Shown: piece after piece, positions 1 through 20,642 of the stretch
Position numbering within the stretch: position 1 is the stretch's first letter
Layout: every line of letters starts with the position of its first letter
IMG/VR virus record: IMGVR_UViG_3300024344_000157
Coordinates: 1-20,852 of that record
From: a virus
Direction: 5' to 3' (one strand)
Length of the DNA stretch: 20,852 bases
The notes under the pieces: model-generated
What the model was told of the DNA's origin: nothing
The model's input: the letters and a program-made list of their open reading frames with translations, nothing else
The model's database searches: none
Translations under genes and position numbers: made by a program

Positions 1-601
1 CATGAGTTAATGTAACATCTTGGTCATCTCCTAAATTAATTACAGCCTCATCTGCAAGATAAAGATCACTAAATTCTAAGGAGGTTGTACCTAATGCAGC
101 ACCGTCAGAAGCATCTGGAACAAATGCAGTTGTGGCAGTTATTGTAGTTCCCTGGACTGTACTTGATCCAGTAAGCGCACCAGTAACAGCTAATGTACCA
201 GCGATAGTAGCATTTTCGTCAATATCAAGTGTATCTATATGTGCAGTACCATCTATATAAAGATCTTTAAATTCGTTTGATGCACCACCTAAATCTATAT
301 CATTATCTGTTATAGGCAGAATAGATCCATCTTGGATACGAACTTGTTGTGTAGCAGTAGAACTAACTTCCGTATAAAATTCTATGTGATTATTAGTAGT
401 ATCTATCAGTACAGCATTCTTCTGGTCTGCATCTGCTATACGATCTATGGGTGGGCCTTCTGCTGCCGTACCGTCATGTGAGTGACCCGTGGAATTGTTG
501 AATGCTGCTAGTACTTGGTTAAACTCTGCATTAAGAGGAGAAGCAGAAACTACCTCACCACTAACTATCTGTGCTGTTGATTGTCTAGTATATCCTGCCA
601 T
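1..601 (-). CDS. Tail fibre / tail-attached structural protein, N-terminal 200 residues (partial)
   Basis: Open minus-strand frame that starts with ATG at 601-599 and runs off the left edge without a stop. The start overlaps the stop of the upstream nozzle gene as TAATG, which fixes the start. The N-terminus (MAGYTRQSTAQIVSGEVV, then LNAEFNQVLAAFNNSTGHSHDG) is the type of virion-attachment segment common on marine podovirus fibres. It is followed by short beta-type repeats with Asp/Gly/Leu spacing: DIDLGGASNEFKDLYIDG near residues 98-115, and again LGTTSLEFSDLYLADEAVIN near 170-189. Such EF-DLY repeats are typical of fibre shafts. The receptor-binding C-terminus lies outside the window, so host-recognition domains cannot be assessed. 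It is the last gene seen in the structural module and is translationally coupled to the nozzle gene. Fibre role is family-based; the frame itself is certain. Confidence 0.8.
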   Translation of the reverse strand, partial: MAGYTRQSTAQIVSGEVVSASPLNAEFNQVLAAFNNSTGHSHDGTAAEGPPIDRIADADQKNAVLIDTTNNHIEFYTEVSSTATQQVRIQDGSILPITDNDIDLGGASNEFKDLYIDGTAHIDTLDIDENATIAGTLAVTGALTGSSTVQGTTITATTAFVPDASDGAALGTTSLEFSDLYLADEAVINLGDDQDVTLTH

Positions 602-2709
602 TATCTGTATCCTGCATCCTGATAAGTTATAGAAAACCCACTAATGCTGTAGGGTGCTTGGGTTCCTGTTGATGTTATAACTAAAGAAATTGCCCTACCT
701 GATCCTTGAATATTTGTTTCCAGTATGGGACTAGATGATCCATCGAAGCTAAAAGTAGAATCGTATGTTGCCCCTGTAGTAGTATACCTTGCTAATGCTC
801 CTGCTGTTGTTAATGAGTATGTATTTGGATCTGGAACATTTGGATCATCCCAATCATACGATATACCTAAATTAATTGTAGAACTCCCCTCTGGTCGGGT
901 AAATAATGATAGATGTTGAAATATTTTGCGTTTTTCGGTAGAGTCGAAATATAGAAATGGCGATGCGTAAACAGCAGTAACATCAGCAGTATTGAATGTA
1001 TTGCCACTTTCCTGCTTAAATATTTCACCATTGCCATCCCCGTGTAACACTGTTTCTACTTTATTTATTAAACCGCTTGTAGCTACAAATGCTCTTATAC
1101 CTAATAATTCACCAAACTCCCATCCGACTCTTCTATCTGCAAACCGTAGACCCCCTACTATACCTGCTGTATCTGACGCTGCCGTACTAGTAGAAGGAAA
1201 GAAATACCTAAATTGAGATTTGTTTCTTATAACTACAGATGTCATATTATCTAGATCGTGGCTACTGGGTAAACCTTGCAGTAATTGTTGTATAGGTTTA
1301 GAAATAGTTTGCAGTTCTATGTCACCAATTCTTGCCGTACCTTGGATAGGCCGAATACCATCAGACGCTAGAAATAAAACATCTCCACCTATTTCCATTA
1401 TACTATCTGTAGCAATACATCCTACATTACTGGTTACGTCTTGTATAGCAAATGTGGTGGTTGCATCTGCTACTATTTTTTTAATTTCGCTTTCCCCAAA
1501 TACAAATAGTGCATCTCTAAACGGGGCAATACCTACGACACTAAAGCCCATGTCCAATACATTTGCAGACCCAGTAAAATCATCATCATCACCAGCTGTC
1601 GTATATAAAACATAACTAGACCCACCTGCACCTGCACCTGTTGGAAAACCTGCATAAAATACTCTATTAGAAAACAACGCAGATACTTTTGCACCTTCAG
1701 GGTCTTTAGGATCTGTGTTTGCAGTATGCGTAGTAAATGTAGACCCTGTAATTTTACACGGTAAATTCACACCATCTGTTAATACAACGCTTACTTCGCT
1801 TTCTAAGTCGTTAAATGAATGCCGTACTTTAGACACACCTATTGATGATCTAAATGAATGTACTCTTGTCCAACCTCCTGTAGTATATTTCCATATTGTG
1901 TAGTATTGGCTATATTTAGCTGTTACTGAACTACCGCCACCTGTTGCACTGCTGGTTGCAGCTGAAGTAAACGTAAGAGTATACTGATTTGCATTTGGCA
2001 CTGTTGCAACAGTCATCTCTACACTATTTGGTGCTATACCTCCAACTGATGATATACCCGATAAAGTAACGAAGTTGCCTACGGACAAACCATGTGCAGT
2101 GTGAGCAACAGTTATGATAGCACTTTCATCTGTAGTGGTTATAGGGTTTGCACCTAAAGTAAATGTTTTTGCTGCCGATACGTCAAAGTATTTAAATGTT
2201 ACTGAGCTACCCCCGTCACTGCCTGAACCACTGGCGTTAGACGTAAATGCAACTGTATAACTATTAGCATCAACAACAGATGCAACAGTCATTTCTACAT
2301 CGTTTGGCGTTATGCCGTTTACAGCATCTGAACCTGAGAATATAACTCTGTCGCTTACTGCTAAACCGTGACTAGTGTGGGCTACAGTAATTGTAGAGCT
2401 TCCACTGCTGGTAGTAAAAGGATCAGTTCCTAAAGATCCAGTATAATCACCATCATTTCTTCGTATAGCGTAAGGTGTACCTTCTAATATAAACAACCCT
2501 ATTACAGACCCTACTCCTGTTACACTCCCATAACTAGAGTCATATGATGTATAACCGTTAATTCTTCTGTACCCACCAAACTGAGATATTTCCATATTTA
2601 ACATACGTAATGCAGCGCCAGGGAAAGACGTAGCTAGTGTAAGTGCATCCTCATTAGTATATAAACCACCACGACTGCTTACGGTAACATCTCTTAGCGC
2701 ATCTACCAT
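601..2709 (-). CDS. Tail nozzle / stabilisation protein (P22 gp10- or T7 gp12-like role), 702 aa
   Basis: Large minus-strand gene directly after the adaptor gene, with start and stop overlapping as TAATG. The N-terminal segment has the PGAALRMLNMEISQFGGYRRINGY pattern (split here: PGAALRMLNMEIS then QFGGYRRINGY, residues 30-53) seen in phage stabilisation/nozzle proteins. Residues about 290-560 read as repeated short beta blades (LFVFGESEIKKI, VLFLASDGIRPIQG), consistent with the beta-propeller of nozzle proteins that extend the portal-adaptor channel and close the tail tip. Two copies of a domain of about 83 residues (residues 93-175 and 185-267, period 92 aa) are inserted before the propeller; each has an AHT-HGL motif. 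Family assignment rests on order (adaptor then nozzle then fibre) plus sequence style. Low Cys, high Ser/Thr/Gly composition fits a virion protein. Confidence 0.75.
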   Translation of the reverse strand: MVDALRDVTVSSRGGLYTNEDALTLATSFPGAALRMLNMEISQFGGYRRINGYTSYDSSYGSVTGVGSVIGLFILEGTPYAIRRNDGDYTGSLGTDPFTTSSGSSTITVAHTSHGLAVSDRVIFSGSDAVNGITPNDVEMTVASVVDANSYTVAFTSNASGSGSDGGSSVTFKYFDVSAAKTFTLGANPITTTDESAIITVAHTAHGLSVGNFVTLSGISSVGGIAPNSVEMTVATVPNANQYTLTFTSAATSSATGGGSSVTAKYSQYYTIWKYTTGGWTRVHSFRSSIGVSKVRHSFNDLESEVSVVLTDGVNLPCKITGSTFTTHTANTDPKDPEGAKVSALFSNRVFYAGFPTGAGAGGSSYVLYTTAGDDDDFTGSANVLDMGFSVVGIAPFRDALFVFGESEIKKIVADATTTFAIQDVTSNVGCIATDSIMEIGGDVLFLASDGIRPIQGTARIGDIELQTISKPIQQLLQGLPSSHDLDNMTSVVIRNKSQFRYFFPSTSTAASDTAGIVGGLRFADRRVGWEFGELLGIRAFVATSGLINKVETVLHGDGNGEIFKQESGNTFNTADVTAVYASPFLYFDSTEKRKIFQHLSLFTRPEGSSTINLGISYDWDDPNVPDPNTYSLTTAGALARYTTTGATYDSTFSFDGSSSPILETNIQGSGRAISLVITSTGTQAPYSISGFSITYQDAGYR
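1909..2433 (-). repeat. Tandem duplicated domain inside the nozzle gene (2 units, 276-bp period)
   Basis: Residues 93-175 and 185-267 of the 702-aa protein align with a 92-residue offset. Shared elements in order are ITVAHT-HGL, a V/F-SG turn, GI-PN-VEMTVA, an AN-YT-FTS strand, and a G-SSVT-KY end. The HGL-x-V-G/D pattern resembles small beta modules found in phage hub and fibre proteins. The DNA copies have diverged, so the duplication is not recent. Confidence 0.75.
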
Positions 2710-4020: not shown

Positions 4021-5085
4021 TTAACCAGCTATGTTATAATGGGCGCGAACAAGAGCTTCAGGACGAAGAATCTTGCGACCATATAAATGCATACCACGAA
4101 CGATGTCAGCAAAGCTGTCATTGTCACGATATGTTTCTACCTTCTCTACCTGAGAAGCAGAGGCAACGGCAGAGTCATGTCCTGCAACAATCGCTCCATA
4201 GTGTGCGCTTGAACCATTGGTATCTACTGTACCTGGGCCAGTTCCTATAGATGGAAGATTGTTAGACATATAAACTCTAAAACCACGAACCATGCCAGAG
4301 ATAATACGTCCATTTCTTAGAATGTCCGTGCTACCTGAAGAAAAGTCGTTACTTAATAGTTTAGAGTTTTCATCGTTTAGCTGTTCTGCAAACACAGGAT
4401 CGACAACAACCCATCGACCATCACGGTCTACGTTTTGCTGATCAAGTAAACGAGCCATACGGTTTAGCACTTCCAAAGGAGTTGCTTCACCAGTAGATCC
4501 GTCTGCATGAGTTGCAATAGAGTCAGTAGTAGCACCACCCGACACAAAACTTGCGCGAGAGACTAACATAGAAGCTAGTAGACCTGTAGCAGCAACAGTG
4601 CTGATTGGGTCAGTACCAGATTTACTAGCAGCAGTTCCAGCAGTAGCAGCAACAGAACTAATAGTTGCTTGTTGGAAACCAGACAAGTATCCTAGTACAT
4701 CCATGTCAAATTGATCTTTTAGGCGATAACCTGCACGATCACTTGCCATTGACTCAAAGTTCACATGAGAATGTGCTTCTTCGATGTCGTCAATTTTAAA
4801 AGCAAAGTAGTTTGCTTTGTCTACAACGAGCGTGAAATCTTCGTCATCGAGATCCTGTGGAGTTACTTGAGTTCCACGGGCATACTCTTTAACGGTAATT
4901 TCAGGCTCTTTGATGATACGAACTGTATCACCGAAGTTTGCGATTTCACCAAAGTAATCACTGTTGGTGATATCTTCTACGACGCTAGTTTTACGAAAAG
5001 CCGACTGAACTTTTTTACTGTAAATTACAGGTGAAAAGTTACCATTCGGGAGGTTTCCGTAACCAGCAGCTGTCTTAAAAGCCAT
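4021..5085 (-). CDS. Major capsid protein, 354 aa (HK97-fold type)
   Basis: Forms the icosahedral head shell. The 354-aa product lies immediately after the scaffold gene and before the decoration-like gene. It has the look of a P22/SU10-type coat: an N-terminal arm (MAFKTAAGYGNLPNGNFSPV), a beta-rich E-loop-like segment (GDTVRIIKEPEITVKEYARG, residues about 53-72), a long spine helix (YRLKDQFDMDVLGYLSGFQ, about 122-140), an Ala/Ser/Thr-rich stretch (about 141-200), and an A-domain with DGRWVVVDPVFAEQL. The start at 5085 is supported by the strongest RBS in the window: GGAGGA, 5 nt upstream. A consensus-like promoter about 190 nt upstream (5278-5305) and a structured leader give this gene its own transcription, as expected for the most abundant virion protein. 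No protease gene and no obvious N-terminal delta domain are seen; scaffold is a separate gene. Confidence 0.88.
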   Translation of the reverse strand: MAFKTAAGYGNLPNGNFSPVIYSKKVQSAFRKTSVVEDITNSDYFGEIANFGDTVRIIKEPEITVKEYARGTQVTPQDLDDEDFTLVVDKANYFAFKIDDIEEAHSHVNFESMASDRAGYRLKDQFDMDVLGYLSGFQQATISSVAATAGTAASKSGTDPISTVAATGLLASMLVSRASFVSGGATTDSIATHADGSTGEATPLEVLNRMARLLDQQNVDRDGRWVVVDPVFAEQLNDENSKLLSNDFSSGSTDILRNGRIISGMVRGFRVYMSNNLPSIGTGPGTVDTNGSSAHYGAIVAGHDSAVASASQVEKVETYRDNDSFADIVRGMHLYGRKILRPEALVRAHYNIAG

Positions 5086-5312: not shown

Positions 5313-6185
5313 TTACATTGCTGCACCAGAAATGTCGTAAATAAAGGTTCCATTACGTATAGATGCCGTAATTGCTTCTTCATTTGCGTCATATTCTCTA
5401 CCTGACATCTTTTGAACATCAGATTCTTTAAACCCACCCCTTTTATTTGCACCAGTATCTGCTCTAGGAGTACCCTTTACAGATACGCTGTCCGCTGCAT
5501 TTGTAGGTGTAGATGTTTTTTTAGTTGCCTTTCTTTCTGCCTTATAGAGCGTGATTGCTTTTGCACAACCATAAGCATCTGTGTCATTTTCGTAAAGTGC
5601 ATCCTGTACCCATTTCGGCTGTACTGATGCCCATTCATGAAAGGCAGGGTCTTTACGTATATTATCGTAGTCAGGGTGAAAGGTGTGTAACTCAGTTTCT
5701 GCTTTTTCACGAACTACATTCTTACGCATTTCCTGTAGCTCTTTCATTTCTTTTTGCAGATCGTCTGACATTTCTCCAGACTTTTTAATTGCAATCGACT
5801 CCATCATCTTTGCAACATCTGGGTATTTTTTAGACCATGTAGCAATCTCTGCTTCTGACTTAGGCAGATTTACAGATTTTTTAGTTAAGTCATTTATTTG
5901 AGACTGTAGCTTCTTTATCTGTTTTTTATGATCGTCCTGTACACGTTGATTGTGCCTACGTAAATCACCGTATCTTTTCTTGAACGTAAGTTCTTCAGCA
6001 TCTAAGGTTTCGTTTTCTTCCTCATCTGCTTTTATCTCTTCCTGTTCTTGCGTCAGGGCATCTCGTTGAGCTATTAGTTCTTTTAACTCTGTCTCTTCGT
6101 CTATGTCTCTTTTGTATTTTCTTTTGGTATTTACAACGTGTCCTTTAATATTGGACGTATCTTCAATTTGTTCTTCGATTGCCAT
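5313..6185 (-). CDS. Capsid scaffolding protein, 290 aa
   Basis: Highly charged, Lys/Glu-rich protein encoded directly upstream of the major capsid gene, the usual place for a scaffold that templates procapsid assembly and is then lost. Residues about 30-165 are strongly helical with coiled-coil character (LKELIAQRDALTQEQEEIKA; HKKQIKKLQSQINDLTKK; LQKEMKELQEMRKN). A Trp-containing folded segment follows (FHPDYDNIRKDPAFHEWASV, residues about 170-190). The C-terminal 60 residues are polar and probably flexible (ATKKTSTPTNAAD) and end in a helix plus short tail (YDISGAAM), which could hold the coat-binding part. Start ATG at 6185 has a good RBS, GGAG 7 nt upstream. No protease motif is visible, so it is not an obvious protease-scaffold fusion. 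Confidence 0.8.
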   Translation of the reverse strand: MAIEEQIEDTSNIKGHVVNTKRKYKRDIDEETELKELIAQRDALTQEQEEIKADEEENETLDAEELTFKKRYGDLRRHNQRVQDDHKKQIKKLQSQINDLTKKSVNLPKSEAEIATWSKKYPDVAKMMESIAIKKSGEMSDDLQKEMKELQEMRKNVVREKAETELHTFHPDYDNIRKDPAFHEWASVQPKWVQDALYENDTDAYGCAKAITLYKAERKATKKTSTPTNAADSVSVKGTPRADTGANKRGGFKESDVQKMSGREYDANEEAITASIRNGTFIYDISGAAM

Positions 6186-6263: not shown

Positions 6264-7532
6264 TCACGTAGTTGATGTTGGTGACATTAAACTATTCTTA
6301 ATTGGAATTTCTTTATCAATACCTTCTATTTGCATTGTTTGCTTTACTAGATCCTTAAGATCAGGAAATGTTTTTTGTTTTTTACTTGAATCTTCATCTG
6401 CACTTCCAACCTCTTCTCCTGCCTCTACACCTGCATCTACTGTATCTTCTATATTACCAGGAACTGTTTCAGAAAAATCAATTATATCTTGTGCAATTCC
6501 AGATAGTTGATCTCCTATTGCTCCTGATATATCCAATCCAAATGGACTTCCACCTATTCCTTCTTTTCCAGTTGCTGCATTTATAACATTACCTATTGCC
6601 AATGTTGCTGCAATAGCTGGACTTACGCCACTTAAAATTCCAGCTAACGTATTTGTAAATCCTACAACGCCAGGGTTTTCTGTTTGGAAACCTTTTTCTG
6701 TAAGTTCGTTAAGATCTAACTGCGCTGATGTAGGATCGTGTTCGTGTCTAGCGTTTGCTACCGCGTCTACAAATCCAACCTTGTCTGGGGTTGCATCAAG
6801 TGCTTGCAAACCTTTTTCATTATTGAGTAACCCATAAGTTCTAGCTTGAGCTAATTCTGCATTTGAAAAATCTTTAGTCACTCTGTCGTAAAGATCAGCA
6901 TACTCTATAGGTTTTTCAATTCCCACAATATTTTGAGTTGCCTCTTGCATTTCTGTTAAACCTTCTTGTAATTCTTGCATTTCTTCTGGTGTAGCTACTC
7001 CAAGTCCTGTCTCATCATCTTCTCCTGCAACTCCTCCTCCTACTCCATCATTGGGGCCAGAGGGTTCCCCCATCCCTCCCATCATCATTTTTAATACATT
7101 ATCTTCTTCTTCTATTTCTTCCTTATCTTTGCCATCAAAATCTACTTCTATTACATTATCCTCAAACAATTCCATCTGTTCGTCCATATTGTCTTCTTTA
7201 TCATCTTCTTCTTGATCGGACATATCATCTTGCATTGCCTGTATGTCTACTTCTACAATTTCTAATTGAGGCTTATCTTGCTCTTTTGTTTCAACAGGCT
7301 CACCGTCCTCATCTACCTTATGCAGTCTGCCATCTTGTTGCATAGACATAAGACCACATTTCGCCATCATATGCATCTCTTCTAGATGTTTTATACCCCA
7401 ATACCGTACAACATCAGCAGGTATTACATACTCACCCTCTGATAGCATTACAGGTATATCGTCAGCTACTTCTTCTTCTAAAGAGCCAAACGGCACTTTG
7501 TTCTCCTCAAAGGGTTTGTCGTAGTTCATCAT
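6264..7532 (-). CDS. Internal virion / ejection-type protein with LSEGEYVIPADVV domain, 422 aa
   Basis: The start is placed at ATG 7532. An in-frame TTG at 7547 would lengthen it by five residues, but its GGAG is exactly the RBS for 7532 (9-nt spacing). The gene overlaps the end of the 1512-aa gene by 26 nt. Residues 25-70 carry DDIPVMLSEGEYVIPADVV followed by RYWGIKHLEEM and a Cys-containing AKCGLMSM segment, a pattern I recognise from structural genes of marine phages but without an assigned biochemical role. Residues about 100-146 are extremely acidic. Residues 150-170 are Met/Gly-rich. Residues about 289-321 form a hydrophobic, Ala/Gly-rich helix pair (LAGILSGVSPAIAATLAIGN) able to enter a membrane. 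The C-terminus is polar. Position between the large internal protein and the scaffold suggests an ejected internal protein; that is inference. Confidence 0.6.
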   Translation of the reverse strand: MMNYDKPFEENKVPFGSLEEEVADDIPVMLSEGEYVIPADVVRYWGIKHLEEMHMMAKCGLMSMQQDGRLHKVDEDGEPVETKEQDKPQLEIVEVDIQAMQDDMSDQEEDDKEDNMDEQMELFEDNVIEVDFDGKDKEEIEEEDNVLKMMMGGMGEPSGPNDGVGGGVAGEDDETGLGVATPEEMQELQEGLTEMQEATQNIVGIEKPIEYADLYDRVTKDFSNAELAQARTYGLLNNEKGLQALDATPDKVGFVDAVANARHEHDPTSAQLDLNELTEKGFQTENPGVVGFTNTLAGILSGVSPAIAATLAIGNVINAATGKEGIGGSPFGLDISGAIGDQLSGIAQDIIDFSETVPGNIEDTVDAGVEAGEEVGSADEDSSKKQKTFPDLKDLVKQTMQIEGIDKEIPIKNSLMSPTSTT

Positions 7533-10500
7533 TTGATTGTTCTCCAAGATTTAAGTCTGACATTTGACTGTCTATGTCTAGCTCTTCTTCTGTTGTGTCT
7601 AAATACAGGGGCATCTCACTTGCACCACCTGCCTCACTTCTATCTCTTGAGTATTGGTCTGCTTCCTCTACAGTATCAAATCGTGGAAACTCTAGATTAG
7701 GGTTTCTTGCCTCAAAGTCCATCGCTGCAATCATTGCATCCTGCCCACTTAATTCTTGTGGTATATTTGTTTTTTTGTCTTTATATATAGTAGGATGTAA
7801 TACAACTGTACCATCCTCTAGTGTAGAAGACGTAGACTTTTCTGTTGCTTCCCTAGTTATGGGCGTAGTGTCTAATTCTGTTTGAGGTAATTCTTCTCGT
7901 ATAGACTCTCCCTGATCTAGCGGTACAAGTTCTGCGTCCTGCTCCACTTCATCGGACTCTATTTCTATTGTTTCTTTAGTGTCTTTCGGTATGAATTGAT
8001 TAATACTAGTTATCGTTGCTACTGGCCCTATGTATGAAGCTAAAACATTAGTATCATTTAAAGTTGAAAACTTTGCAGAAAGTTCTTTACTTATTTTTGT
8101 AGGATCTTTTGGATCAAATGTAATTGCTTTAAGAGTGGTTATATACTCGTTTGGCTTACCTACTTTAAATATATCTTTAATTTTTTTAGATGACCCTTTT
8201 ACGACTTGTTTTGCTAACACGGGCGGTAATGTTGCCTGAGAAAAAGGTTGCCTTACTACCTTATCTTTCGCCTTGCCTTGAGCAGTAAACACATTTTTCA
8301 TCTCATCATTTACAGGAATTGTTAAAAATACATCTCCTACTTCATTTGCCTGTTCATTTATTCTAAGAAGAAATCGTGATATGTAGCCCCCACTTGCTTC
8401 TGTATCTTTCCATGATGATATATTAGTGTCATCAAAGGCTGCTTCCTTTGCCCATTTATTTCCAAATTCTTTTTGATATTCTGCCCTACCTTGTGGCGTA
8501 TTTGGAGCATATGTAAACTTTTTAAATCTGGTTGTTTTTTCTATGCCCTCTGCGAATTGATATTCAGATAAATTATTAAATATAAGAGAGGCTTTGCCAT
8601 CAGGTTTGAATGCCAAAGATGCAGTAAGATTATATGATTCTTTGGCTGCCTTGAAAGCAGTGTTGCCGTATGCGTTACTGAATATTAAATCTACATAGCC
8701 AAGAACTACGTCTATGTTTTGATTATCAACATCTCCTTTTGTATATTTTATAACAGAATCTTTTACGTTAATATATGTTTCTAATAGTTCTTTTATATTT
8801 GGATTTTGGGGAAGTACGAAACCCTCTACAACAGGGGGAACGTGCATACTTAGCGATTTACCCAGAGTTAAAAATTGTAAAGGAATAGCACCTTTAGGTG
8901 GTGCAGATGTCGCTCCAGCCATTGTTCCTTGATATAATTTTTTCTTACCTGTAATTATATAGTTACTGGAACTTACGCCATCTTCAAATACATATGCATT
9001 GTTATATAGGGGCTTATCATACACAAATGCATTTTGGTTCATATCCCCACCATATATGGGGCCTACTGAACTATATTGTGATACTCCCTCTACTTTCTTA
9101 TAATTAACGCCATCAGGTAGTTGCTTAAAAGTCCAGTTATTACTACCAAAAGGGTCTAGCATAAATTTTACTTTTTCTTTTACGCCCTTTTTCTTTAATA
9201 CTTTATCAACAGCTACTGCTTGCTTTCTAGTGTATGAAGGTAGGGGGGTAGTACCCAATGGTAGATTTGTTGGCGCGGAAAGTTCTTCATCTGTCTGTTC
9301 TTTTCCAATTCCCCACTTTTTTTTCTGTTTTACTATCTCTTGAGAAAAAGGAATTTCTCCTTGCTCAATCGCCTCACTTAATTCTTTTCCTAGTATTTCT
9401 TCGCTAGATGCTCCTGCTGCTTTTGCTTTGTAATAAGCACTAGGGGTTAAAGTAGTGCCTTGTATCAAACTGGGATAAGGTTGTTGAAACGTCAGTTCCC
9501 CTTGACTAAATCTTTGAAAACCGCCTGTAGGATCAAAGCCCTGCTTCTGTGCTTTATATTCAGGAGTGCTTCTATATTTAGCAAGTAATATTTGTAGTGG
9601 CTCATTTATTTTGTTTGGGCCATCTCCAGAAGGAGAGAAGGTAAGTTCTTGCAGATCTTTTTCGTTTATTGGAGTAGGTTTTACTGCAACGGCATCATGT
9701 ACATCTATAGAGTCTTGTAAACTTTTTGATATATTACCCCATCTAGAACCATACGTATTAATAAAGTTATCAACTGCGTCATCAGCATTCATCCCAACAG
9801 CTTTAGTGGCCCTCTCTACAGTGTCTAGCAATTCTTCTTGGTTCATTCTGAATTGTGCTAGTGCTTTTTTAACCCCTTGCATATATGCTATGGGGTTTTT
9901 ATTATATGCATCCATAAGCACACTACGGGCTGCTTCATTTTTTTCACTAACTAACGAAGACCAATCTTCTATAGAATTAGAAGGTACATCAAAGAAAGAG
10001 GTTGAGTTAGGTTTATATCCACCCATAGCCCTAAAAGCACCAGACCCTCCAGCATCAAGTTGTATTAACTGAGCTTTGCCAGTTCCTAATTTTTTTCCAA
10101 ACGCTACATTATCTTTAGCTAAACCTATTGCATCCCAATCTTTCATAATGGCTGCGGCAACGTGTATTCTTCCCATGTCTTCTGGGTCTACAAAATCAAC
10201 TTTATAGGGTTCTATGTCCTCAATAAATTCTGATAGAATGAATACTTTTCCTTTACCATCTATATTTGCGTGTATTACTTTAACGTCTGGGGTTTTTGTA
10301 CCTGTTATTTGATACGCTTTAGCAGTTATAGCTTCTTGAGCAGCTTGCTCTGGATTATCATAATATTTAGCAATATACTCTATACCTGTTGCTTTATCTT
10401 TTATTTTAGCACCATCTGCTGAACCACCAGGTTTTGGCCCTATCGTTTCAAATTCTTCAAATTGAACCATATCAGAATCTTTTGCTTTTTTCAAATCATC

Positions 10501-12045
10501 TAGGACAGTTGCCGTATCCTGAAATTTTTTCTCAAATTCTGGGTCAGGAGACATACTCGAAGTTTCTAATATTGGATGGTCGTTTAAAGTAGTTTTATTT
10601 ATTTTTAAAGTGTCTGCCATCTCGTTTGCTTCTACCATATATTTATCAATATTTTTGTTTTGTAAATAGGTAAGGTAGTTAGATGCAAATTTTTTATCTA
10701 TTTGTTCAGTACTTGCTAATAGGTTTCCTTTTAAAACAAAACTTTCTTCTTCTTCTAACACATTAAATAAATCTTTATAATTATCTGGAGTTTTAGCATT
10801 TTTTACTGCTTTTAAAAACTCAATCTCGTCACTAGCAGATGGCACACCCTTAAATGGAAATGCGTCTTGTGCGTCTTCTGGTTTAGTTTTATATTTTTCT
10901 AGAAACTCTTCAGGTGTCATAGGTTTAACAGAATCAACGGCTTTTAAAATAGATTCTGGTACATTTGATTTATCTTGCTCTCCCAGTTCTTTTGCTAATT
11001 CAGAAAGTTCGTCATCAAATGGATCTTCTATTTCTGGTGGTTTATTTTCTTGTATAGATTTTAATAAGTTTTCCTCTATATCTGGTGCTTTTAGTGCTAA
11101 TTCTGTTTGTTTATCTACGGGAAGTTTTTCTGCTTCTGTTACAGGTGTTCCTAAAGGCTCTTCGTCTGTTGGTTTTGGCTCAACAGCTTTATCTAGCTCT
11201 TTATTAATTTCTGGCGATAACTTTTCTTTTACGGCTTCATATTTATTTGCCGTGTCTTCACCTTTAGCTTTTGCAAATGCCATCTTACGCATGGTATTTA
11301 ATTTTATAATACCTCTAACTGCACTCTCTGAAAGACCTAAAGCTATTAATGTTTCTATCCCGTTATTAACACGGTTTTCAAATTCTGTATTGTTAGGATT
11401 AGTAGCGAGTATTCTACCTAAAGTTTCTAACGCCTCTAAGTTATTTTCTTTAGATATATCTTCTACAAAATTAAAAAAGTTTTCTTCGTCTGGTGACATA
11501 CCGCCAAAACCAACTAGCGCATCTGCTGTTGCTGTTGCTACTAGGGGCCTAAAGCCTAAAGCTACTTGAAATATTCTTGCAAAGCCTATTGCAGGAACTG
11601 CATAACTAACCATTTCACCACCTGCTGTTCCTAATTTTCCTATAGTTTCCATTAAACGTCTGCCCCCTGCATCTTTCTCTGGGGCCTGTTCACTAGCAAA
11701 TTTTAAGAACTTACCTGATACACTTTTGCTAAGAGTATCTACGTATTCTTGATCCAACGCACCTACAAATGATGCAAAGTTTCCTCCTATCTTTCCTAGA
11801 CCGTGGAGTAGTCCAAAGGCTATAGATGTAGGAACCATGTACGTCGATTTAAGAGCAGCCTCTAAAGAAATAGTTTGAGGTACTTTTTCTTTTTCCGTAT
11901 CTAACTCTGTTAAAGTTTGTGCTATATTATATAATGGAGATCCCTTTGTAGATCTTCTTAGTCTGTCTTCTCTTCTAAGACGCTCTAGGGCTGATTCTAA
12001 ATTGCGGCGTGGTTCTTTAGCCATTTTATTGTTTTTTCCCATCAT
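7507..12045 (-). CDS. Giant internal virion protein with kinase-like domain, 1512 aa
   Basis: Largest gene in the window, in the slot where short-tailed phages keep ejection/internal proteins. The N-terminus is basic (NLESALERLRREDRLRRSTK). Residues about 64-97 and 145-182 are hydrophobic and Gly/Ala-rich (SIAFGLLHGLGKIGG; VSYAVPAIGFARIFQVALGF), suggesting membrane interaction. Residues about 280-520 are charged and linker-like. Residues 535-680 look like a protein-kinase-fold domain (see separate entry). Residues 1000-1350 are a mixed alpha/beta region I do not recognise. Residues 1411-1480 hold a small motif found near the ends of other phage virion proteins: LHPTIYKDKK, then PRFDTVEEADQYSRDRSEA. 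The C-terminus is acidic. Start ATG at 12045 (or the adjacent 12042) overlaps the 69-aa gene; ATG 12024 just after that gene's stop is a possible alternative, and no RBS is decisive. Ejection role is inferred from position and build; enzymatic activity is untested. Confidence 0.65.
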   Translation of the reverse strand: MMGKNNKMAKEPRRNLESALERLRREDRLRRSTKGSPLYNIAQTLTELDTEKEKVPQTISLEAALKSTYMVPTSIAFGLLHGLGKIGGNFASFVGALDQEYVDTLSKSVSGKFLKFASEQAPEKDAGGRRLMETIGKLGTAGGEMVSYAVPAIGFARIFQVALGFRPLVATATADALVGFGGMSPDEENFFNFVEDISKENNLEALETLGRILATNPNNTEFENRVNNGIETLIALGLSESAVRGIIKLNTMRKMAFAKAKGEDTANKYEAVKEKLSPEINKELDKAVEPKPTDEEPLGTPVTEAEKLPVDKQTELALKAPDIEENLLKSIQENKPPEIEDPFDDELSELAKELGEQDKSNVPESILKAVDSVKPMTPEEFLEKYKTKPEDAQDAFPFKGVPSASDEIEFLKAVKNAKTPDNYKDLFNVLEEEESFVLKGNLLASTEQIDKKFASNYLTYLQNKNIDKYMVEANEMADTLKINKTTLNDHPILETSSMSPDPEFEKKFQDTATVLDDLKKAKDSDMVQFEEFETIGPKPGGSADGAKIKDKATGIEYIAKYYDNPEQAAQEAITAKAYQITGTKTPDVKVIHANIDGKGKVFILSEFIEDIEPYKVDFVDPEDMGRIHVAAAIMKDWDAIGLAKDNVAFGKKLGTGKAQLIQLDAGGSGAFRAMGGYKPNSTSFFDVPSNSIEDWSSLVSEKNEAARSVLMDAYNKNPIAYMQGVKKALAQFRMNQEELLDTVERATKAVGMNADDAVDNFINTYGSRWGNISKSLQDSIDVHDAVAVKPTPINEKDLQELTFSPSGDGPNKINEPLQILLAKYRSTPEYKAQKQGFDPTGGFQRFSQGELTFQQPYPSLIQGTTLTPSAYYKAKAAGASSEEILGKELSEAIEQGEIPFSQEIVKQKKKWGIGKEQTDEELSAPTNLPLGTTPLPSYTRKQAVAVDKVLKKKGVKEKVKFMLDPFGSNNWTFKQLPDGVNYKKVEGVSQYSSVGPIYGGDMNQNAFVYDKPLYNNAYVFEDGVSSSNYIITGKKKLYQGTMAGATSAPPKGAIPLQFLTLGKSLSMHVPPVVEGFVLPQNPNIKELLETYINVKDSVIKYTKGDVDNQNIDVVLGYVDLIFSNAYGNTAFKAAKESYNLTASLAFKPDGKASLIFNNLSEYQFAEGIEKTTRFKKFTYAPNTPQGRAEYQKEFGNKWAKEAAFDDTNISSWKDTEASGGYISRFLLRINEQANEVGDVFLTIPVNDEMKNVFTAQGKAKDKVVRQPFSQATLPPVLAKQVVKGSSKKIKDIFKVGKPNEYITTLKAITFDPKDPTKISKELSAKFSTLNDTNVLASYIGPVATITSINQFIPKDTKETIEIESDEVEQDAELVPLDQGESIREELPQTELDTTPITREATEKSTSSTLEDGTVVLHPTIYKDKKTNIPQELSGQDAMIAAMDFEARNPNLEFPRFDTVEEADQYSRDRSEAGGASEMPLYLDTTEEELDIDSQMSDLNLGEQSNDELRQTL
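10006..10443 (-). other. Kinase-like (HipA / PI-kinase-like fold) domain within the 1512-aa protein
   Basis: Residues about 535-680 show kinase landmarks in the right order. They are a glycine-rich loop GPKPGGSADGAKI (536-548), a candidate ATP-binding Lys in YIAKYY (K560), and a helix-C Glu in QAAQEAITAKAYQITG (E571). A hinge-like strand FILSEFIED (602-610), a catalytic-loop-like segment DWDAIGLAKDN (636-646) and a metal-binding-like QLDAGGSGAFRAMGG (662-676, D664) follow. The D-x-D...DN then LDxGG arrangement is closer to HipA/phosphoinositide-kinase-like enzymes than to canonical Ser/Thr kinases (no HRD or DFG). All key positions seem filled, so an active enzyme is plausible. Confidence 0.55.
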
Positions 12046-12235
12046 TTATAACATTGGCCTTTAACTTTAGTAATTGATCTAGTATAGATATCTGGCCTTG
12101 ATACCTGTGTATTTCTACGGGAGAATCTGCATACGAAAGATTAGCAACTGCCCTTTCTCTTATGTAGCTTATGTGCTTTTCCAATTCTTCATATCGGGGA
12201 TGCGTAACTATATCCCGTAGTTTTTTGTACTCCAT
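12026..12235 (-). CDS. Small conserved helical protein next to portal, 69 aa
   Basis: Begins ATG at 12235, overlapping the portal stop as TAATG, so it is translationally coupled to portal. The sequence is helical and amphipathic: MEYKKLRDIVTHPRYEELEK, then a central helix, then IHRYQGQISILDQLLKLK. The THP...L and YQGQI-xL-xx-LL pattern is one I associate with short proteins beside portal genes in several phage groups. Its function is not known to me; a portal or head-vertex accessory role is possible. Its end overlaps the start of the 1512-aa gene by 20 nt if that gene begins at 12045. The gene is certainly in a coding position: frame, coupling and composition all agree. Confidence 0.7.
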   Translation of the reverse strand: MEYKKLRDIVTHPRYEELEKHISYIRERAVANLSYADSPVEIHRYQGQISILDQLLKLKANVINDGKKQ

Positions 12236-14370
12236 TATTGTAGTAATCCTGGGGGTAATCCTGCATTAGGTGGCGGTTCCTGCATCTGTTGTTGCTGTTG
12301 AGGTGCTTGTGGAGGATTACCTGAAAACTGTGGTTCTCCTGGTACTGGTACTCCACCTACACCTATGTTAGCATTACCTGCCCCTGTCATATCCATCTCG
12401 CCCTGTGGCGGTTGTTGTGGCCCTTGCTGTTGTTGCATCAAATATGTTTGCCTCAACATTTCCTCTGGTGTATTTGTAACTTTATTTGGATCTAGCATCA
12501 TCGACTTAGCTATCTCACGTATTATGTAAGGGAACTTAGCAAACGGTGCAAGTACAGGATTACTCGTTATTTGCAAGAAGGACATAAGCCGTTGTGACCT
12601 TACCTCGTTTTGCATCAGGCTTTCTAGTCCTCTAGCTTTAACTTCTAGGTCACCCTTTATGTCTTTGTTGTAGTTAAACTGCATATTGAACGCGAACATA
12701 GCCTGACCTAGTGGGCGTAGCATATAGTCATCAAAGTTTTTAACAACAGTTTTTATAGAACCTGCTGCTGCCCCCATCAACATAGAGATACCAGCTGCCG
12801 TTCTACCTACTCCCGAAACACCAGTTTGCCCGTGTGAAAATGACGGTATGCCTGTTGACTCATCAGCTAACACTCTGGCTTTATCAAACAACTGCATATT
12901 TTCGTTACTTACGTTAGGAAACTTAGTGCCAAATATAGCCTGTCCAGGCGCACCGCCTTGTCTTCTAAATACTTTTCCTGGGTATACTGTAAGATCTTGT
13001 CCTGGGGTTAAATTAGTTTCATCTACCTCTATAAGCAAGTTGCCAGACAAAACTGCATTATCCACTGCCATACGCATAAACCCATTCATCAGGGTCTGTG
13101 TATCATCCATGTTTTCGCCAACGCCAATACCAAAGAAGGCATATGGATTTAATTCATACGGAACAGCACAGTAAGGTATGCGTTTTGGTAGAAATGGATT
13201 GACCACAAACCGTAGCACTTCGCCATTACATATCCATACGTTTACCTGTAGTTCGTCTACCTCGCTGTATTCTTCTGGTATATCTATGCCAGATTCTTCT
13301 ACAAGTTCTCTGTCCATTACACCCCAATACTCTAGGGCTTCATATCTGTGTGTGTCGTACCCACGGGAACTTTCCTCATCCTGAGAATCAAGTAAGCTGG
13401 ATTCCCACCATTTTATGTTGTAGTTTTGGCCTTTTTCTATAGCCTCTGCAATAGAATCTTCTCTAAAAAATGGTCTGGTTCGTAAATTTCTTAATTGTGT
13501 TTTGGTAAGTTTGTGACGCTCTATTACGTAGTCGCACTCTTCTATATTAGATGCATCAGGGTCAGGATAAAAATTCCAAGAAGACACATGAGATACTTTA
13601 GGAACTGTCTTAATTGTTGGATCGTATTGCCCATCATCATCCCAGTTTGCATACTCTTTGGTTGTAGCAAACGGCCCTTTGAGTACACCAGTGCCAAACA
13701 GAGCGCATTCAAATGCAGTATTTCTAAGGTGCATACTGGCATCTGATTCTTCTAGCTGATCTTTTATCTGTTTTTCCATCATTTTTGCAGCGACCATTGC
13801 AGGATGAAAATTAACAGAAGATTGAGTTATGCCAAACCCCTCATTAAGTGTGTCTACATTTTCCAGTGCGTCTTTTAGTGGGCCTAGCTTTTCAGACAGG
13901 TCGCTTAATTCCGTAGCACCAGGAGGTAAAACTTTACCATCACCATCATAACCGTATAGATCTTTTGGCATTTCTCCTAAATCTACATCTTTAGGTTCAT
14001 TAGGATCAAAATTTACAGTTTCTGCTACGCCCTCTGGTAAAATTGTGGGTTCAATAGACAGAGGAAACTCGTTGTTTGCAAGTAATACATCTACTAATTG
14101 ACTGTACGCTGCTAATACTTTTGTCTTTGTTACTTTTATAAATACGCGAGATTTTTCTGCTTCAGTAAACTGTACATCAGGAGAGTATACGCCCCTATAG
14201 TTTTTATATGCACGTATCCAGTTTGACTCTTCCTGATATTTTGCATCTTCTGCCCTAGAAAATAATTTTTCTATATGATCAGTTATACCAGAAGCATCTT
14301 CAGTTTCTTGGTTACCATCTTCTAAATAGGAACTGGTGCTATCGTCTAAAAATTCTGTTTCGTCAGCCAT
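12235..14370 (-). CDS. Portal protein, 711 aa
   Basis: Forms the dodecameric ring at the unique vertex through which DNA enters and leaves. Encoded 13 nt after the large terminase stop, the standard order; an AAGG RBS lies 6 nt before ATG 14370. The body matches large podovirus portals: an acidic N-terminus, ESNWIRAYKNYRGVYSPDV (about 49-67), RVFIKVTKTKVLAAYSQLVD (about 75-94), then a wing region with DPDASNIEECDYVIER (about 271-286). The stem/crown region contains FGIGVGENMDDTQTLMNGFM and TAAGISMLMGAAAGSIKTVV. At 711 aa it is close to SU10/P22-type length. The last 69 residues (643-711) are low-complexity Gln/Pro/Gly (for example PQAPQQQQQMQEPPP), probably a disordered tail or the end of the barrel, and are hard to align. 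Confident from content and position. Confidence 0.85.
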   Translation of the reverse strand: MADETEFLDDSTSSYLEDGNQETEDASGITDHIEKLFSRAEDAKYQEESNWIRAYKNYRGVYSPDVQFTEAEKSRVFIKVTKTKVLAAYSQLVDVLLANNEFPLSIEPTILPEGVAETVNFDPNEPKDVDLGEMPKDLYGYDGDGKVLPPGATELSDLSEKLGPLKDALENVDTLNEGFGITQSSVNFHPAMVAAKMMEKQIKDQLEESDASMHLRNTAFECALFGTGVLKGPFATTKEYANWDDDGQYDPTIKTVPKVSHVSSWNFYPDPDASNIEECDYVIERHKLTKTQLRNLRTRPFFREDSIAEAIEKGQNYNIKWWESSLLDSQDEESSRGYDTHRYEALEYWGVMDRELVEESGIDIPEEYSEVDELQVNVWICNGEVLRFVVNPFLPKRIPYCAVPYELNPYAFFGIGVGENMDDTQTLMNGFMRMAVDNAVLSGNLLIEVDETNLTPGQDLTVYPGKVFRRQGGAPGQAIFGTKFPNVSNENMQLFDKARVLADESTGIPSFSHGQTGVSGVGRTAAGISMLMGAAAGSIKTVVKNFDDYMLRPLGQAMFAFNMQFNYNKDIKGDLEVKARGLESLMQNEVRSQRLMSFLQITSNPVLAPFAKFPYIIREIAKSMMLDPNKVTNTPEEMLRQTYLMQQQQGPQQPPQGEMDMTGAGNANIGVGGVPVPGEPQFSGNPPQAPQQQQQMQEPPPNAGLPPGLLQ

Positions 14371-14383
14371 GTTTTACCTTCTC

Positions 14384-15952
14384 TTAATATCCAAATACTG
14401 CATCAGCAGGTTTAAAAGTTTCTATAGCTGATGTTGAAGGATCTAAATCAAATATATTTCTAGGCACTGGTCTAGATTGTAGTCCATATCTTAATGCATC
14501 GTATAAATGGTCTTCTGAATGTGTATCTATATCCTCTGGGTTTCTTTTGTCTAACGGTAAAATAGGCAACTGTGCAATTAAATTTGTACACGTATTAAAT
14601 ATCTGTATCCCAGGCATATCTGTATCTTCATCTACACGCAACAGTCTGTGTACCTCATTTTTACCGCTTACCCTACTTCCTTTACTTCTATCTGATGGCC
14701 TAAATCTACAGCCTTCTAGTATCATTTGCTCTGCAAGGCTAGGGCCTGTATCGCCTCGTTTGTGCCAACATGAAGAGTCTAAAACTCCATACGCCATCTT
14801 ACCGTCTTGGTTTTCTAAATTCAATATAATTCTAGCCAACTCTACCGCCAAAACTTTTCTTACGTACAATTCTCTGTATACAACTAATGTATCATCTGGC
14901 GTAACCGCAAACCATAATACGGCAGAATAAGATCCGTACCCATAGTCACAGGCCCTAAATTTTCTCCACCCACTAGGTATATCATACGGTTGTATTACGT
15001 GGGTCTTTCTATCAAACTCTGTAAATGCAGCGCCCTCTGCAATATCCCAACTTCCGTATAGTAGTTGTTTTCTTTGTACCTCTGGCAGAGACAGTAGCAT
15101 TGTTTCGTAGTCACCCTCATTGTAAAGATATGGATTATCCTTTAAACTGGCTGGTATAAACCTTCTTTGAAACAATGGCTCCCCTGCTCTACTGTGACCT
15201 TTCGGGTATCTTAATACCTCCTTTGTTTCGGAATCTCTAGCCCAAAACGATTTGTTTGGGGTTGATGGATCTATAAACATCTTCTTAACCCAAGAATGTC
15301 CTGGCCCTCCTGGGTTTGTAGTCGCTCTCATATATACTTTTATCTCAGGGTTTGTTGACCTTAATCGAGATCTGAGATAATCCCAAGGAAACGCTGTAGG
15401 ATATTGCGTAAGCTCGTCAAAACCCACGTACGAAAAGCTTTGACCTTGGTAACGAAGTACGTCTTTATCCTGTTCCAAGTACGTGAGCCAAATTCTCGCA
15501 CCTGATGGAAAAGTCCATTGACTTTTTCTTTCAGACCATTTGGCCCCACGATAAAACTTCGGATATAGTTCCGTAGACTTGTGAATAAGTTCCCTAAGTT
15601 CGTCATTTGTTCTCCTAAGTATAAGTGCGCTATGATCAGACTGTTTACAGTACCTCAATGGGTCTATTAATAGCGCAAAACTTTTACCTCCTCCAGCAGC
15701 ACCCCCGTACAGTACTTCTCTTTCTGGTGCATCTATAAACTCTTGTTGTGGCCCCTTGTTTAACGTAACATAACTAGTATTAATCTGTTCTTTTTGTTCT
15801 TCGCTAGGCGAGGAGTTCGTCTGCCCATTCGGTGTCGATTCTATCTCCTCTTTGTTCAACTGAAGCGTAGAGGATTTTTTCTTGGATGCTTTTCTCTTTT
15901 TGGGCGTACTCTTTCGCTTTGGAGGCATAATGTTTGTACGATTGGACTGCAT
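14384..15952 (-). CDS. terL: Terminase large subunit (TerL), 522 aa
   Basis: ATP-driven DNA packaging motor and headful/end-cutting nuclease. The ATPase part has Walker A GGAAGGGKS (83-91), Walker B-type SYVGFDE (174-180) and a coupling-type motif TTNPGGPGHSW (211-221). The C-terminal RNase H-like nuclease has acidic residues in place: FRACDYG (D336), YGVLDSS (D392) and SEDHLYDALRYGL (D481/D485). The first 60 residues are an extra Lys-rich, probably disordered extension (KRKSTPKKRKASKKKSS) absent from compact TerL proteins. Its coding sequence overlaps the upstream HTH gene by 149 nt in another frame. Start ATG 15952 follows a GA-rich purine stretch; ATG 15928 is an alternative with no RBS. 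The next gene is portal. Assignment is very secure. Confidence 0.93.
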   Translation of the reverse strand: MQSNRTNIMPPKRKSTPKKRKASKKKSSTLQLNKEEIESTPNGQTNSSPSEEQKEQINTSYVTLNKGPQQEFIDAPEREVLYGGAAGGGKSFALLIDPLRYCKQSDHSALILRRTNDELRELIHKSTELYPKFYRGAKWSERKSQWTFPSGARIWLTYLEQDKDVLRYQGQSFSYVGFDELTQYPTAFPWDYLRSRLRSTNPEIKVYMRATTNPGGPGHSWVKKMFIDPSTPNKSFWARDSETKEVLRYPKGHSRAGEPLFQRRFIPASLKDNPYLYNEGDYETMLLSLPEVQRKQLLYGSWDIAEGAAFTEFDRKTHVIQPYDIPSGWRKFRACDYGYGSYSAVLWFAVTPDDTLVVYRELYVRKVLAVELARIILNLENQDGKMAYGVLDSSCWHKRGDTGPSLAEQMILEGCRFRPSDRSKGSRVSGKNEVHRLLRVDEDTDMPGIQIFNTCTNLIAQLPILPLDKRNPEDIDTHSEDHLYDALRYGLQSRPVPRNIFDLDPSTSAIETFKPADAVFGY

Positions 15953-19944: not shown

Positions 19945-20601
19945 TTAGTGTTTTACCTTTCTTGTGCGTCCATTCTTTTTGACTGCTTCAATAATAATAT
20001 TAGGTGTTTCAAAATTATAACATATCATGCACGTTTTACACTGCTGGCCCGTGCAATTCTGCTCTTCAACTTTATGATCACTCCAAACATTATTAAATAC
20101 CTTATGAAAAAATTCTGGAATATCTTTTTCATACTTAACTTTATTAATAATCGGATTGGAATAAACTAAAATAATATTATCTGGGGTTTTCATTTTCTTG
20201 GCAACTGATCTAACAATAGGTATTCGCTTAGTCCATATTGCTATTTTACAATGTGGATTTTTTAGGGCCAAGTTATAAATATTAATTAAATGATTGTCGT
20301 TTATTAGTTCGCCGTGTCCGTCAATTCTTAGGTAAGCATCTAATAAAAAAGGCAACCTATCACTAGATAAAATAGAACTAGATAAAAGATTGCTGTTATC
20401 TTGTAGTGCCGGTTGCATATTTTTACGATAGGAACCCAGCATTTCTTGACTGTAACATCTAGTACAAATTACGTTATCTTTACCGCTGTTGTATTGTGTT
20501 ATACAAAATTCATTCGTGACTGTATTTGTATTGATGGCCCGTAAACTATCCAGCTTTCCAGTCATTTTAGAAATATGTATTTGGTTTGGATCTCTTGGCA
20601 T
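19945..20601 (-). CDS. Cysteine-rich phage protein resembling the gp88 family, 218 aa
   Basis: Start set at ATG 20601 with GGAG 9 nt upstream; an in-frame TTG at 20616 overlaps that RBS and is rejected. Cysteines cluster twice: C33, C46 and C49 (EFCITQYNSG, NVICTRCYSQ) and C183, C188, C191, C194 (NCTGQQCKTCMICY), spacing CX4CX2CX2C. Between them lie segments typical of a TIM-barrel-like fold: FLLDAYLRIDGHGELINDNH (about 85-104) and KIAIWTKR (119-126), then VRSVAKKMKTPDNIILVYSN. This layout resembles mycobacteriophage gp88-like proteins and is broadly reminiscent of radical-SAM-like phage proteins; the function of that family is not known to me. The clusters may bind zinc or an iron-sulphur centre. 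The gene is more AT-rich than its neighbours, opposite in strand, and has its own promoter: a moron-like acquisition. Confidence 0.6.
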   Translation of the reverse strand: MPRDPNQIHISKMTGKLDSLRAINTNTVTNEFCITQYNSGKDNVICTRCYSQEMLGSYRKNMQPALQDNSNLLSSSILSSDRLPFLLDAYLRIDGHGELINDNHLINIYNLALKNPHCKIAIWTKRIPIVRSVAKKMKTPDNIILVYSNPIINKVKYEKDIPEFFHKVFNNVWSDHKVEEQNCTGQQCKTCMICYNFETPNIIIEAVKKNGRTRKVKH

Positions 20602-20642
20602 TTTGTATTTCTCCAATAGATATGTTTATAAAAAGTAATTAG

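What the first reader, a model, noticed from the sequence alone, without database searches (positions are those of the whole stretch)
10006..10443. Kinase-like domain embedded in a giant internal virion protein
The 1512-aa protein sits where short-tailed phages keep ejected internal proteins, yet residues 535-680 carry a full set of kinase-like landmarks: GGSADG loop, K560, E571, DWD at 636-638, N646 and LDAGG at 663-667. If active and injected with the genome it would be a phosphorylating enzyme delivered at infection, before any phage gene is expressed. It could act on host targets or on the phage's own proteins, as proposed for polyvalent phage proteins.
Basis: partly seen in the sequence, partly recalled or inferred. 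Interest (0 to 1): 0.7.

Follow-up and report, generated by a model that had tools for sequence, protein, structure and literature searches.

The report
HipA-like kinase in phage head protein
A marine virus of bacteria carries, inside a very large protein encoded among its head-building genes, a kinase-fold enzyme with every key catalytic residue intact, and hundreds of other phages carry the same uncatalogued module, often fused to head proteins and toxin-like enzymes, so it is probably an enzyme packed in the virus particle and used on the host at the moment of infection.

Summary
The kinase-like domain is real. Residues ~529-727 of the 1512-aa ORF (7507-12045, minus) belong to a large family: a profile built without the window and its nearest relative finds it at E=1.8e-27, and K560, Y578 and D638 are kept in 116/116 relatives (E571 115, N646 114, D664 114). 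The catalytic Asp is D638, not D636. AlphaFold2 (94 sequences) gives a confident two-lobed kinase fold (pLDDT 87, pTM 0.85); all listed PDB matches are kinases, the highest TM-score among them to HipA-like CtkA. Profile comparison ties the family to HipA, but HipA hallmarks (FDR motif, catalytic-loop His) are absent, so it is a separate HipA-like family. No Pfam, NCBIfam or PHROG model fits. Of 79 full-length relatives, 27 carry MuF, 4 minor-capsid and 1 portal domain; 22 carry an ADP-ribosyltransferase. One relative is recorded as phage-particle associated. The window is an HMO-2011-like podovirus; the cultured relatives examined lack this gene, so it looks like accessory cargo between portal and coat genes. 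Best reading: a virion-packaged, injected HipA-like kinase. Fold and catalytic residues are shown computationally; packaging, injection, activity and target are inferred. Prior art: HipA-family kinases between portal and coat in five 'Gratiaviridae' phages (2021), read as superinfection immunity.

The parts
7507..12045 (-). 1512-aa ORF carrying the kinase-like domain; probable true start at M8 (12024)
   Evidence: the ORF listing; homologues L137 and L138 start at the equivalent of M8
9601..10533 (-). segment modelled by AlphaFold2 (residues 505-815); kinase fold, pLDDT mostly 85-97 for residues ~535-775
9865..10461 (-). homologous core of the kinase-like domain (residues 529-727)
   Evidence: HMM matches
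10411..10428 (-). GGSADG loop (residues 540-545) between beta1 and beta2; G541 116/116, S542 110/116, G545 108/116
10366..10368 (-). K560, predicted ATP-binding Lys on beta3; 116/116; aligns with HipA K181
10333..10335 (-). E571, predicted alphaC Glu; 115/116; aligns with HipA E203
10132..10134 (-). D638, predicted catalytic Asp (counterpart of HipA D309 by pattern); 116/116
   Evidence: pattern compared with HipA columns
10108..10110 (-). N646, predicted metal-binding Asn of the catalytic loop (counterpart of HipA N314 by pattern); 114/116
10054..10056 (-). D664, predicted metal-binding Asp of the DxGG motif (counterpart of HipA D332 by pattern); 114/116
10021..10035 (-). FRAMG motif (residues 671-675), family signature [FY]RAxG; R672 113/116, A673 114/116
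11476..11868 (-). N-terminal conserved Gly-rich hydrophobic stretch (residues 60-190) found only in the window's own phage clade
7984..9216 (-). C-terminal region conserved in the clade (residues 944-1354); no family match, model uninformative (pLDDT 31)
12235..14370 (-). portal protein, SU10/HMO-2011 type, 65% identical to HMO-2011
12026..12235 (-). 69-aa ORF between portal and the kinase protein, in the position of HMO-2011 gp50
   Evidence: position only; no sequence match
6264..7547 (-). 427-aa ORF, N-terminus matches HMO-2011 gp49, which in HMO-2011 follows portal/gp50 directly
5313..6185 (-). 290-aa ORF, equivalent of HMO-2011 gp48, between gp49 and coat (scaffold position)
4021..5085 (-). 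major coat protein (64% identical to HMO-2011 coat)
14384..15952 (-). terminase large subunit

Best explanation
Residues ~529-785 form a catalytically competent HipA-like kinase domain inside an accessory protein of a marine HMO-2011-like podovirus. The protein is made late with the head genes, packaged in the head, and enters the host with the DNA. There the kinase uses Mg-ATP (K560/E571 hold the phosphates, N646 and D664 the metal, D638 acts as catalytic base) to phosphorylate a host target, most likely a protein Ser/Thr as HipA does, before phage genes are expressed. Shown by computation: homology, fold, conservation of catalytic residues, purifying selection, gene position, family fusion to head proteins. 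Inferred: packaging of this particular protein, injection, catalysis, protein rather than small-molecule substrate.
For: Family match E=1.8e-27 in a leave-out profile. K560, D638 116/116; E571 115; N646, D664 114 of 116. AlphaFold2 pLDDT 87.2, pTM 0.85 with kinase order of elements. PDB fold search: 195 hits at E<=1e-3, all 50 listed are kinases, highest listed TM-score 0.51 to HipA-like CtkA. HipA_C Pfam model rings in 44 of 94 relatives at E<=0.1, best 7e-7, while nearly all other families ring once; profile-profile comparison with HipA probability 92%, p=5.4e-7, column-shuffled controls below 1%. dN/dS 0.17 for the domain versus L005, about 0.2-0.3 in the clade. Delivery: gene between portal and coat in the window and in L138, and directly after portal in several unrelated phages; 27/79 full-length relatives carry MuF, 4 minor capsid protein 2, 1 portal; architecture MuF - kinase - ADP-ribosyltransferase seen directly (L121, L109; L123 with minor capsid protein 2); fHe-Yen8-01 homologue annotated 'phage particle associated protein'. 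Precedent: T4 Alt, a packaged and injected ADP-ribosyltransferase (described in PMC5512222).
Against: The window clade is a long branch (2.28 changes per column) and has lost some near-invariant family residues (D631 to A, W633 to I, R662 to Q), so its activity could have changed. It lacks detectable MuF, portal or ADP-ribosyltransferase domains itself. No mass spectrometry exists for this phage. The only particle evidence is an annotation note on a distant homologue whose underlying data I could not find. TM-scores to solved kinases are modest.
Confidence: 0.55

Rival explanations
1. The domain has the kinase fold and uses ATP but does not phosphorylate proteins: it modifies a small molecule or nucleotide, or AMPylates or otherwise modifies targets, perhaps in NAD/ADP-ribose chemistry given its partners.
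For: Frequent fusion to ADP-ribosyltransferase (22/79), NUDIX (7/79) and WGR (6/79) domains; a NUDIX or nucleotide-phosphatase gene lies two genes downstream in phages Jeremy, ST4 and Mecenats66. Kinase-fold enzymes with other chemistry are established (SelO, SidJ; own knowledge).
Against: Conserved K/E/D/N/D set matches ordinary phosphotransfer; nearest named families are the protein kinases HipA and CtkA.
Confidence: 0.2
2. The kinase acts in the producing cell late in infection (superinfection immunity or host envelope change), not after injection, as proposed for the HipA-family kinase of 'Gratiaviridae' (PMC8008677).
For: Late-gene position between portal and coat, the same argument as in PMC8008677.
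Against: Direct fusion of the domain to MuF, minor capsid and portal proteins in relatives and the particle-associated homologue point to the virion; that proposal did not consider packaging in the passages read.
Confidence: 0.1
3. The domain is a regulatory or structural module: an ATP-binding or self-phosphorylating module that keeps neighbouring effector domains off in the head or helps translocation, with no host substrate.
For: It lies in the middle of proteins, with a median of 631 residues before and 411 after, between head and effector domains.
Against: Full catalytic set conserved, which pure scaffolds often lose; some relatives are short or nearly stand-alone (L021, 245 aa; L026 second ORF, 507 aa).
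Confidence: 0.13
4. Chance resemblance to a kinase.
For: No database model matches the window domain on its own.
Against: Leave-out profile score 93 bits versus at most 7.7 in 2000 shuffles; confident kinase-fold model.
Confidence: 0.01

Closest known systems
HipA family kinases (PF07804 HipA_C; PF20613 HipA_2; H. pylori CtkA as a solved HipA-like relative)
   Same: Kinase fold; Lys, alphaC Glu, catalytic Asp, loop Asn and metal Asp in the same order; statistically supported remote homology.
   Different: No FDR motif, no His in the catalytic loop (NWDxxGxxxDN instead of NxDxHxxN), DxGG...[FY]RAxG signature after the metal Asp, no HipA N-terminal subdomain, no HipB-like partner; embedded in giant phage proteins.
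HipA-family kinase of 'Gratiaviridae' gut phages (Benler et al. 2021, PMC8008677)
   Same: HipA-like kinase encoded between portal and major capsid genes.
   Different: Reported in five phages and explained as late-acting superinfection immunity; no fusion to head proteins or packaging discussed in the passages read. Whether it is the same family could not be tested here.
T4 Alt and MuF- or polyvalent-type injected effectors (PMC5512222, PMC9503650)
   Same: Large proteins encoded in head modules, fused to MuF or portal and to ADP-ribosyltransferases, predicted to be packaged and injected; relatives of this domain sit in just such proteins.
   Different: The kinase domain here is not named in the passages read (no 'HipA' in either paper); the window protein has no detectable MuF, portal or ADP-ribosyltransferase domain.
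Protein kinase clade of polyvalent proteins (Iyer et al. 2017, PMC5512222)
   Same: Kinase domain in large proteins of invasive elements.
   Different: That clade is a Ser/Thr/Tyr kinase group that lost the whole C-terminal subdomain and keeps the His-Asp pair; the window family has no catalytic His and a predicted helical C-lobe.
Phage T7 Gp0.7 protein kinase
   Same: Phage kinase that modifies host proteins early in infection.
   Different: Expressed from an early gene after DNA entry, not packaged, and assigned to another kinase family in PMC8008677.

Membership tests
Kinase-fold (protein-kinase-like) superfamily | Two-lobed fold: beta sheet plus alphaC, then helical lobe with catalytic loop and two strands | tested here: met
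   AlphaFold2 pLDDT 87.2, pTM 0.85, expected order of elements; listed PDB fold matches are kinases
Kinase-fold (protein-kinase-like) superfamily | Conserved ATP Lys, alphaC Glu, catalytic Asp, loop Asn, metal Asp | tested here: met
   K560 116/116, E571 115, D638 116, N646 114, D664 114 of 116
Kinase-fold (protein-kinase-like) superfamily | ATP-dependent phosphotransfer | not testable with these tools
   needs biochemistry
HipA family (PF07804) | Sequence match to the HipA_C profile | tested here: inconclusive
   44 of 94 relatives match at E<=0.1, best 7e-7, but the window domain does not; HH probability 92%
HipA family (PF07804) | FDR motif and NxDxHxxN catalytic loop with His | tested here: not met
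   Conserved in the 11-sequence HipA set, absent from the family alignment
HipA family (PF07804) | HipB-type antitoxin encoded next to it | tested here: not met
   Neighbours in the window are head genes; 69-aa ORF upstream has no Pfam match
Polyvalent-protein kinase clade (PMC5512222) | Conserved His-Asp pair with insert, Glu before strand 2, loss of C-terminal subdomain | tested here: not met
   No conserved catalytic His; helical C-terminal lobe predicted. Judged from the text only; the paper's alignment file is not held
Head-packaged injected phage effector (MuF/Alt type) | Encoded in the head module with portal, terminase and coat | tested here: met
Head-packaged injected phage effector (MuF/Alt type) | Fusion to a head-structural domain | tested here: inconclusive
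   Not found in the window protein, found in 27 (MuF), 4 (minor capsid) and 1 (portal) of 79 relatives
Head-packaged injected phage effector (MuF/Alt type) | Present in purified virions | not testable with these tools
   Only an annotation note on the fHe-Yen8-01 homologue
Conserved ejection protein of short-tailed phages | Conserved at the syntenic place in close relatives | tested here: not met
   No homologue in the HMO-2011, CRP-345 or phiM6 regions; whole-protein search of 50,697 phage records finds only the kinase domain, in two other phages

The most novel reading that the evidence does not exclude
A widespread, so far unnamed class of virion-packaged HipA-like kinases, built into head proteins and often paired with an ADP-ribosyltransferase in one polypeptide, so that many unrelated phages phosphorylate (and ADP-ribosylate) host targets before any phage gene is expressed. 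The window holds a divergent marine branch of it.
Probability: 0.45. Interest if true: 0.8.

Novelty: new variant of a known kind. Interest (0 to 1): 0.62.

Why it matters
Injected effector enzymes are the first thing a phage does to a cell, and known catalytic examples are mainly ADP-ribosyltransferases such as T4 Alt. A conserved kinase module that recurs in head proteins across phages of Proteobacteria, Actinobacteria and others, with no model in Pfam, NCBIfam or PHROGs, would add phosphorylation to that first strike, give hundreds of 'hypothetical' head proteins a testable activity, and offer another explanation for the HipA-like kinases reported between portal and capsid genes in gut phages. 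The pairing of kinase and ADP-ribosyltransferase in one polypeptide is directly testable in cultured phages.

Tried and rejected
Direct PDB sequence searches with the domain alone and the family profile found no kinase. Window domain alone against Pfam, NCBIfam and PHROGs: no match; a weak DUF4473 hit at 232-268 is below cut-off and ignored. Idea that the whole protein is the standard podovirus ejection protein: rejected by synteny with HMO-2011. Idea that it is the known polyvalent-protein kinase: rejected on the missing His and the present C-lobe. C-terminal region 944-1354: no PDB match, AlphaFold2 model worthless (pLDDT 31), so no function assigned and no fold search run on it. Looking for relatives of the N- and C-terminal parts without the kinase: only the same small clade came back, and every member long enough has the kinase. 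In one search the L005 row was taken from a spurious second hit; its values are discarded and replaced. HipA and E. coli alignment in the catalytic loop is by pattern, because the significant profile alignment covers only the N-lobe. No paper on fHe-Yen8-01 is held; no paper linking HipA-like kinases with ADP-ribosyltransferases in phages found.

Full report
What is there. The finding lies in a 1512-aa ORF on the minus strand, 7507-12045. Whole-protein tblastn against 50,697 phage records returns only two records, and both match exactly the kinase-like segment (residues 522-678) inside otherwise unrelated giant proteins: Enterobacter phage phiT5282EW (2253 aa) and Yersinia phage fHe-Yen8-01 (2146 aa). 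That behaviour is that of a mobile domain.

Family. Using the phiT5282EW copy as query brings in Pseudomonas, Aeromonas, Morganella, Gordonia and actinobacterial phages. A profile-guided scan finds 249 relatives in viral contigs and 29 in bacterial genome contigs. Across 116 distinct domains K560, Y578, D638 and G541 never change; E571 is kept in 115, N646, D664 and A673 in 114, R672 and K678 in 113. D636 is Asn in 111, so D638 is the catalytic Asp. With the window and L005 left out of the profile, the window still scores 93 bits (E=1.8e-27); the best of 2000 shuffles scores 7.7. No Pfam, NCBIfam or PHROG model covers the family; the only consistent signal is HipA_C, in 44 of 94 members at E<=0.1 (best 7e-7), with HipA_2 in 8.

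Fold. AlphaFold2 on residues 505-815 with 94 sequences gives pLDDT 87.2 and pTM 0.85. Elements follow the kinase order: three strands with K560 on the third, helix C with E571, two strands, helix E, the D638...N646 loop, two strands, D664, then a helical lobe. PDB fold search gives 195 hits at E<=1e-3; all 50 listed are kinases, the highest listed TM-score (0.51) being the HipA-like kinase CtkA. Among viral models the best hits are members of the same family, including one annotated as an HK97-type portal protein and several annotated as ADP-ribosyltransferases. Profile-profile comparison with HipA gives probability 92% and p=5.4e-7 against below 1% probability for ten column-shuffled controls, aligning K560 with HipA K181 and E571 with E203; the match is significant in the N-lobe only. 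HipA hallmarks FDR and NxDxHxxN are absent. So it works like a HipA-type kinase by fold and residues, but is not a HipA family member by its defining motifs.

Delivery. The window is a podovirus of the HMO-2011 type: portal 65% identical to Puniceispirillum phage HMO-2011, with terminase, coat, adaptor and tail genes matching in order. In HMO-2011 the order is portal, gp50, gp49, gp48, coat. In the window the 427-aa ORF matches gp49 and the 290-aa ORF matches gp48; the 1512-aa gene is an extra between the gp50 and gp49 positions, with no counterpart in the HMO-2011, CRP-345 or phiM6 regions examined. It is therefore accessory cargo in the head module, not the usual ejection protein. The same place also holds other extra genes in relatives (a methyltransferase after the gp49-like gene in CRP-345; an HNH-type ORF before the coat gene in MW202701).

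Evidence for packaging comes from the family. Of 79 full-length relatives scanned, 27 carry Phage_Mu_F, 4 Phage_min_cap2 and 1 Phage_portal, all head-structural domains; 22 carry ADPrib_exo_Tox, 6 ART, 7 NUDIX, 6 WGR (counts of the two ART-type models overlap in part). Direct examples: L121 has MuF 188-318, kinase 669-866, ADP-ribosyltransferase 1030-1218; L123 has minor capsid protein 11-355, kinase 564-760, ADP-ribosyltransferase 924-1077. In Gordonia, DSL-LC01 and Pseudomonas juntendi elements the gene lies directly after or near the portal or minor head gene. The fHe-Yen8-01 protein is noted as phage particle associated. From established knowledge (T4 Alt, MuF effectors; described in PMC5512222 and PMC9503650) such proteins are packaged and injected. 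For the window's own protein this remains inference.

Is it active? In the window's clade the domain is under purifying selection: dN/dS 0.17 versus L005 and about 0.2-0.3 for other pairs. All relatives of the rest of the protein that are long enough keep the kinase. Against this, the clade is a long branch (2.28) and has lost D631, W633 and R662, which are near-invariant elsewhere. I put about 0.97 on the kinase fold, 0.75 on ATP-dependent catalysis of some kind, and 0.55 on the full statement of a packaged and injected protein kinase.

Known or new. HipA-family kinases between portal and capsid genes were reported in five 'Gratiaviridae' phages and read as late-acting superinfection immunity (PMC8008677). 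The polyvalent-protein literature describes injected ADP-ribosyltransferases and a different kinase clade (PMC5512222). I found no paper that names this family, its fusion to MuF or portal domains and ADP-ribosyltransferases, or proposes a packaged HipA-like kinase; the library holds only openly licensed papers, so this is not proof of novelty. I rate it a new variant of a known kind (injected head effector) with interest 0.62.

Noticed in passing
L026 202-4578 and 5110-6630; L027: Two ORFs carrying this kinase domain lie in tandem in the same viral contig (1459 aa and 507 aa), with divergent copies.
   Followed up: no
L008 8739-9587, L009 7747-8502, L011 10262-11005: A gene annotated NUDIX hydrolase or nucleotide phosphatase lies two genes downstream of the kinase/ADP-ribosyltransferase gene in three phages, which hints at a shared nucleotide or ADP-ribose pathway.
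   Followed up: no
window 7507-12045 versus L137 8001-12353: Mosaic protein: residues 1-330 about 90% and 1351-1512 84% identical to L137, but the middle only 24-55%, which points to recombination within the gene.
   Followed up: partly
window residues 631, 633, 662: Near-invariant family residues Asp631 (114/116), Trp633 and Arg662 are replaced (A, I, Q) in the window protein while the catalytic set is kept; D631 and W633 are also lost in L137 and L138. Possibly a changed substrate or regulation.
   Followed up: partly
relatives (e.g. L116 residues 361-426): A WGR domain occurs in 6 of 79 kinase proteins, with an ADP-ribosyltransferase in L116.
   Followed up: no
window 601-2709 and 2-601: End_beta_barrel (endosialidase beta-barrel) match E=1.3e-13 in the 702-aa ORF; the next, truncated ORF has a weak endosialidase tail-spike match.
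   Followed up: no
window 19945-20616: ORF matches Pfam GP88 (E=1e-6), above its cut-off; function unknown.
   Followed up: no
L118, L119, L129, L134: Pseudomonas syringae-group genomes carry kinase-family proteins of 560-773 aa; the L118 one has a C-terminal NUDIX domain. Not checked whether they lie in prophages.
   Followed up: no
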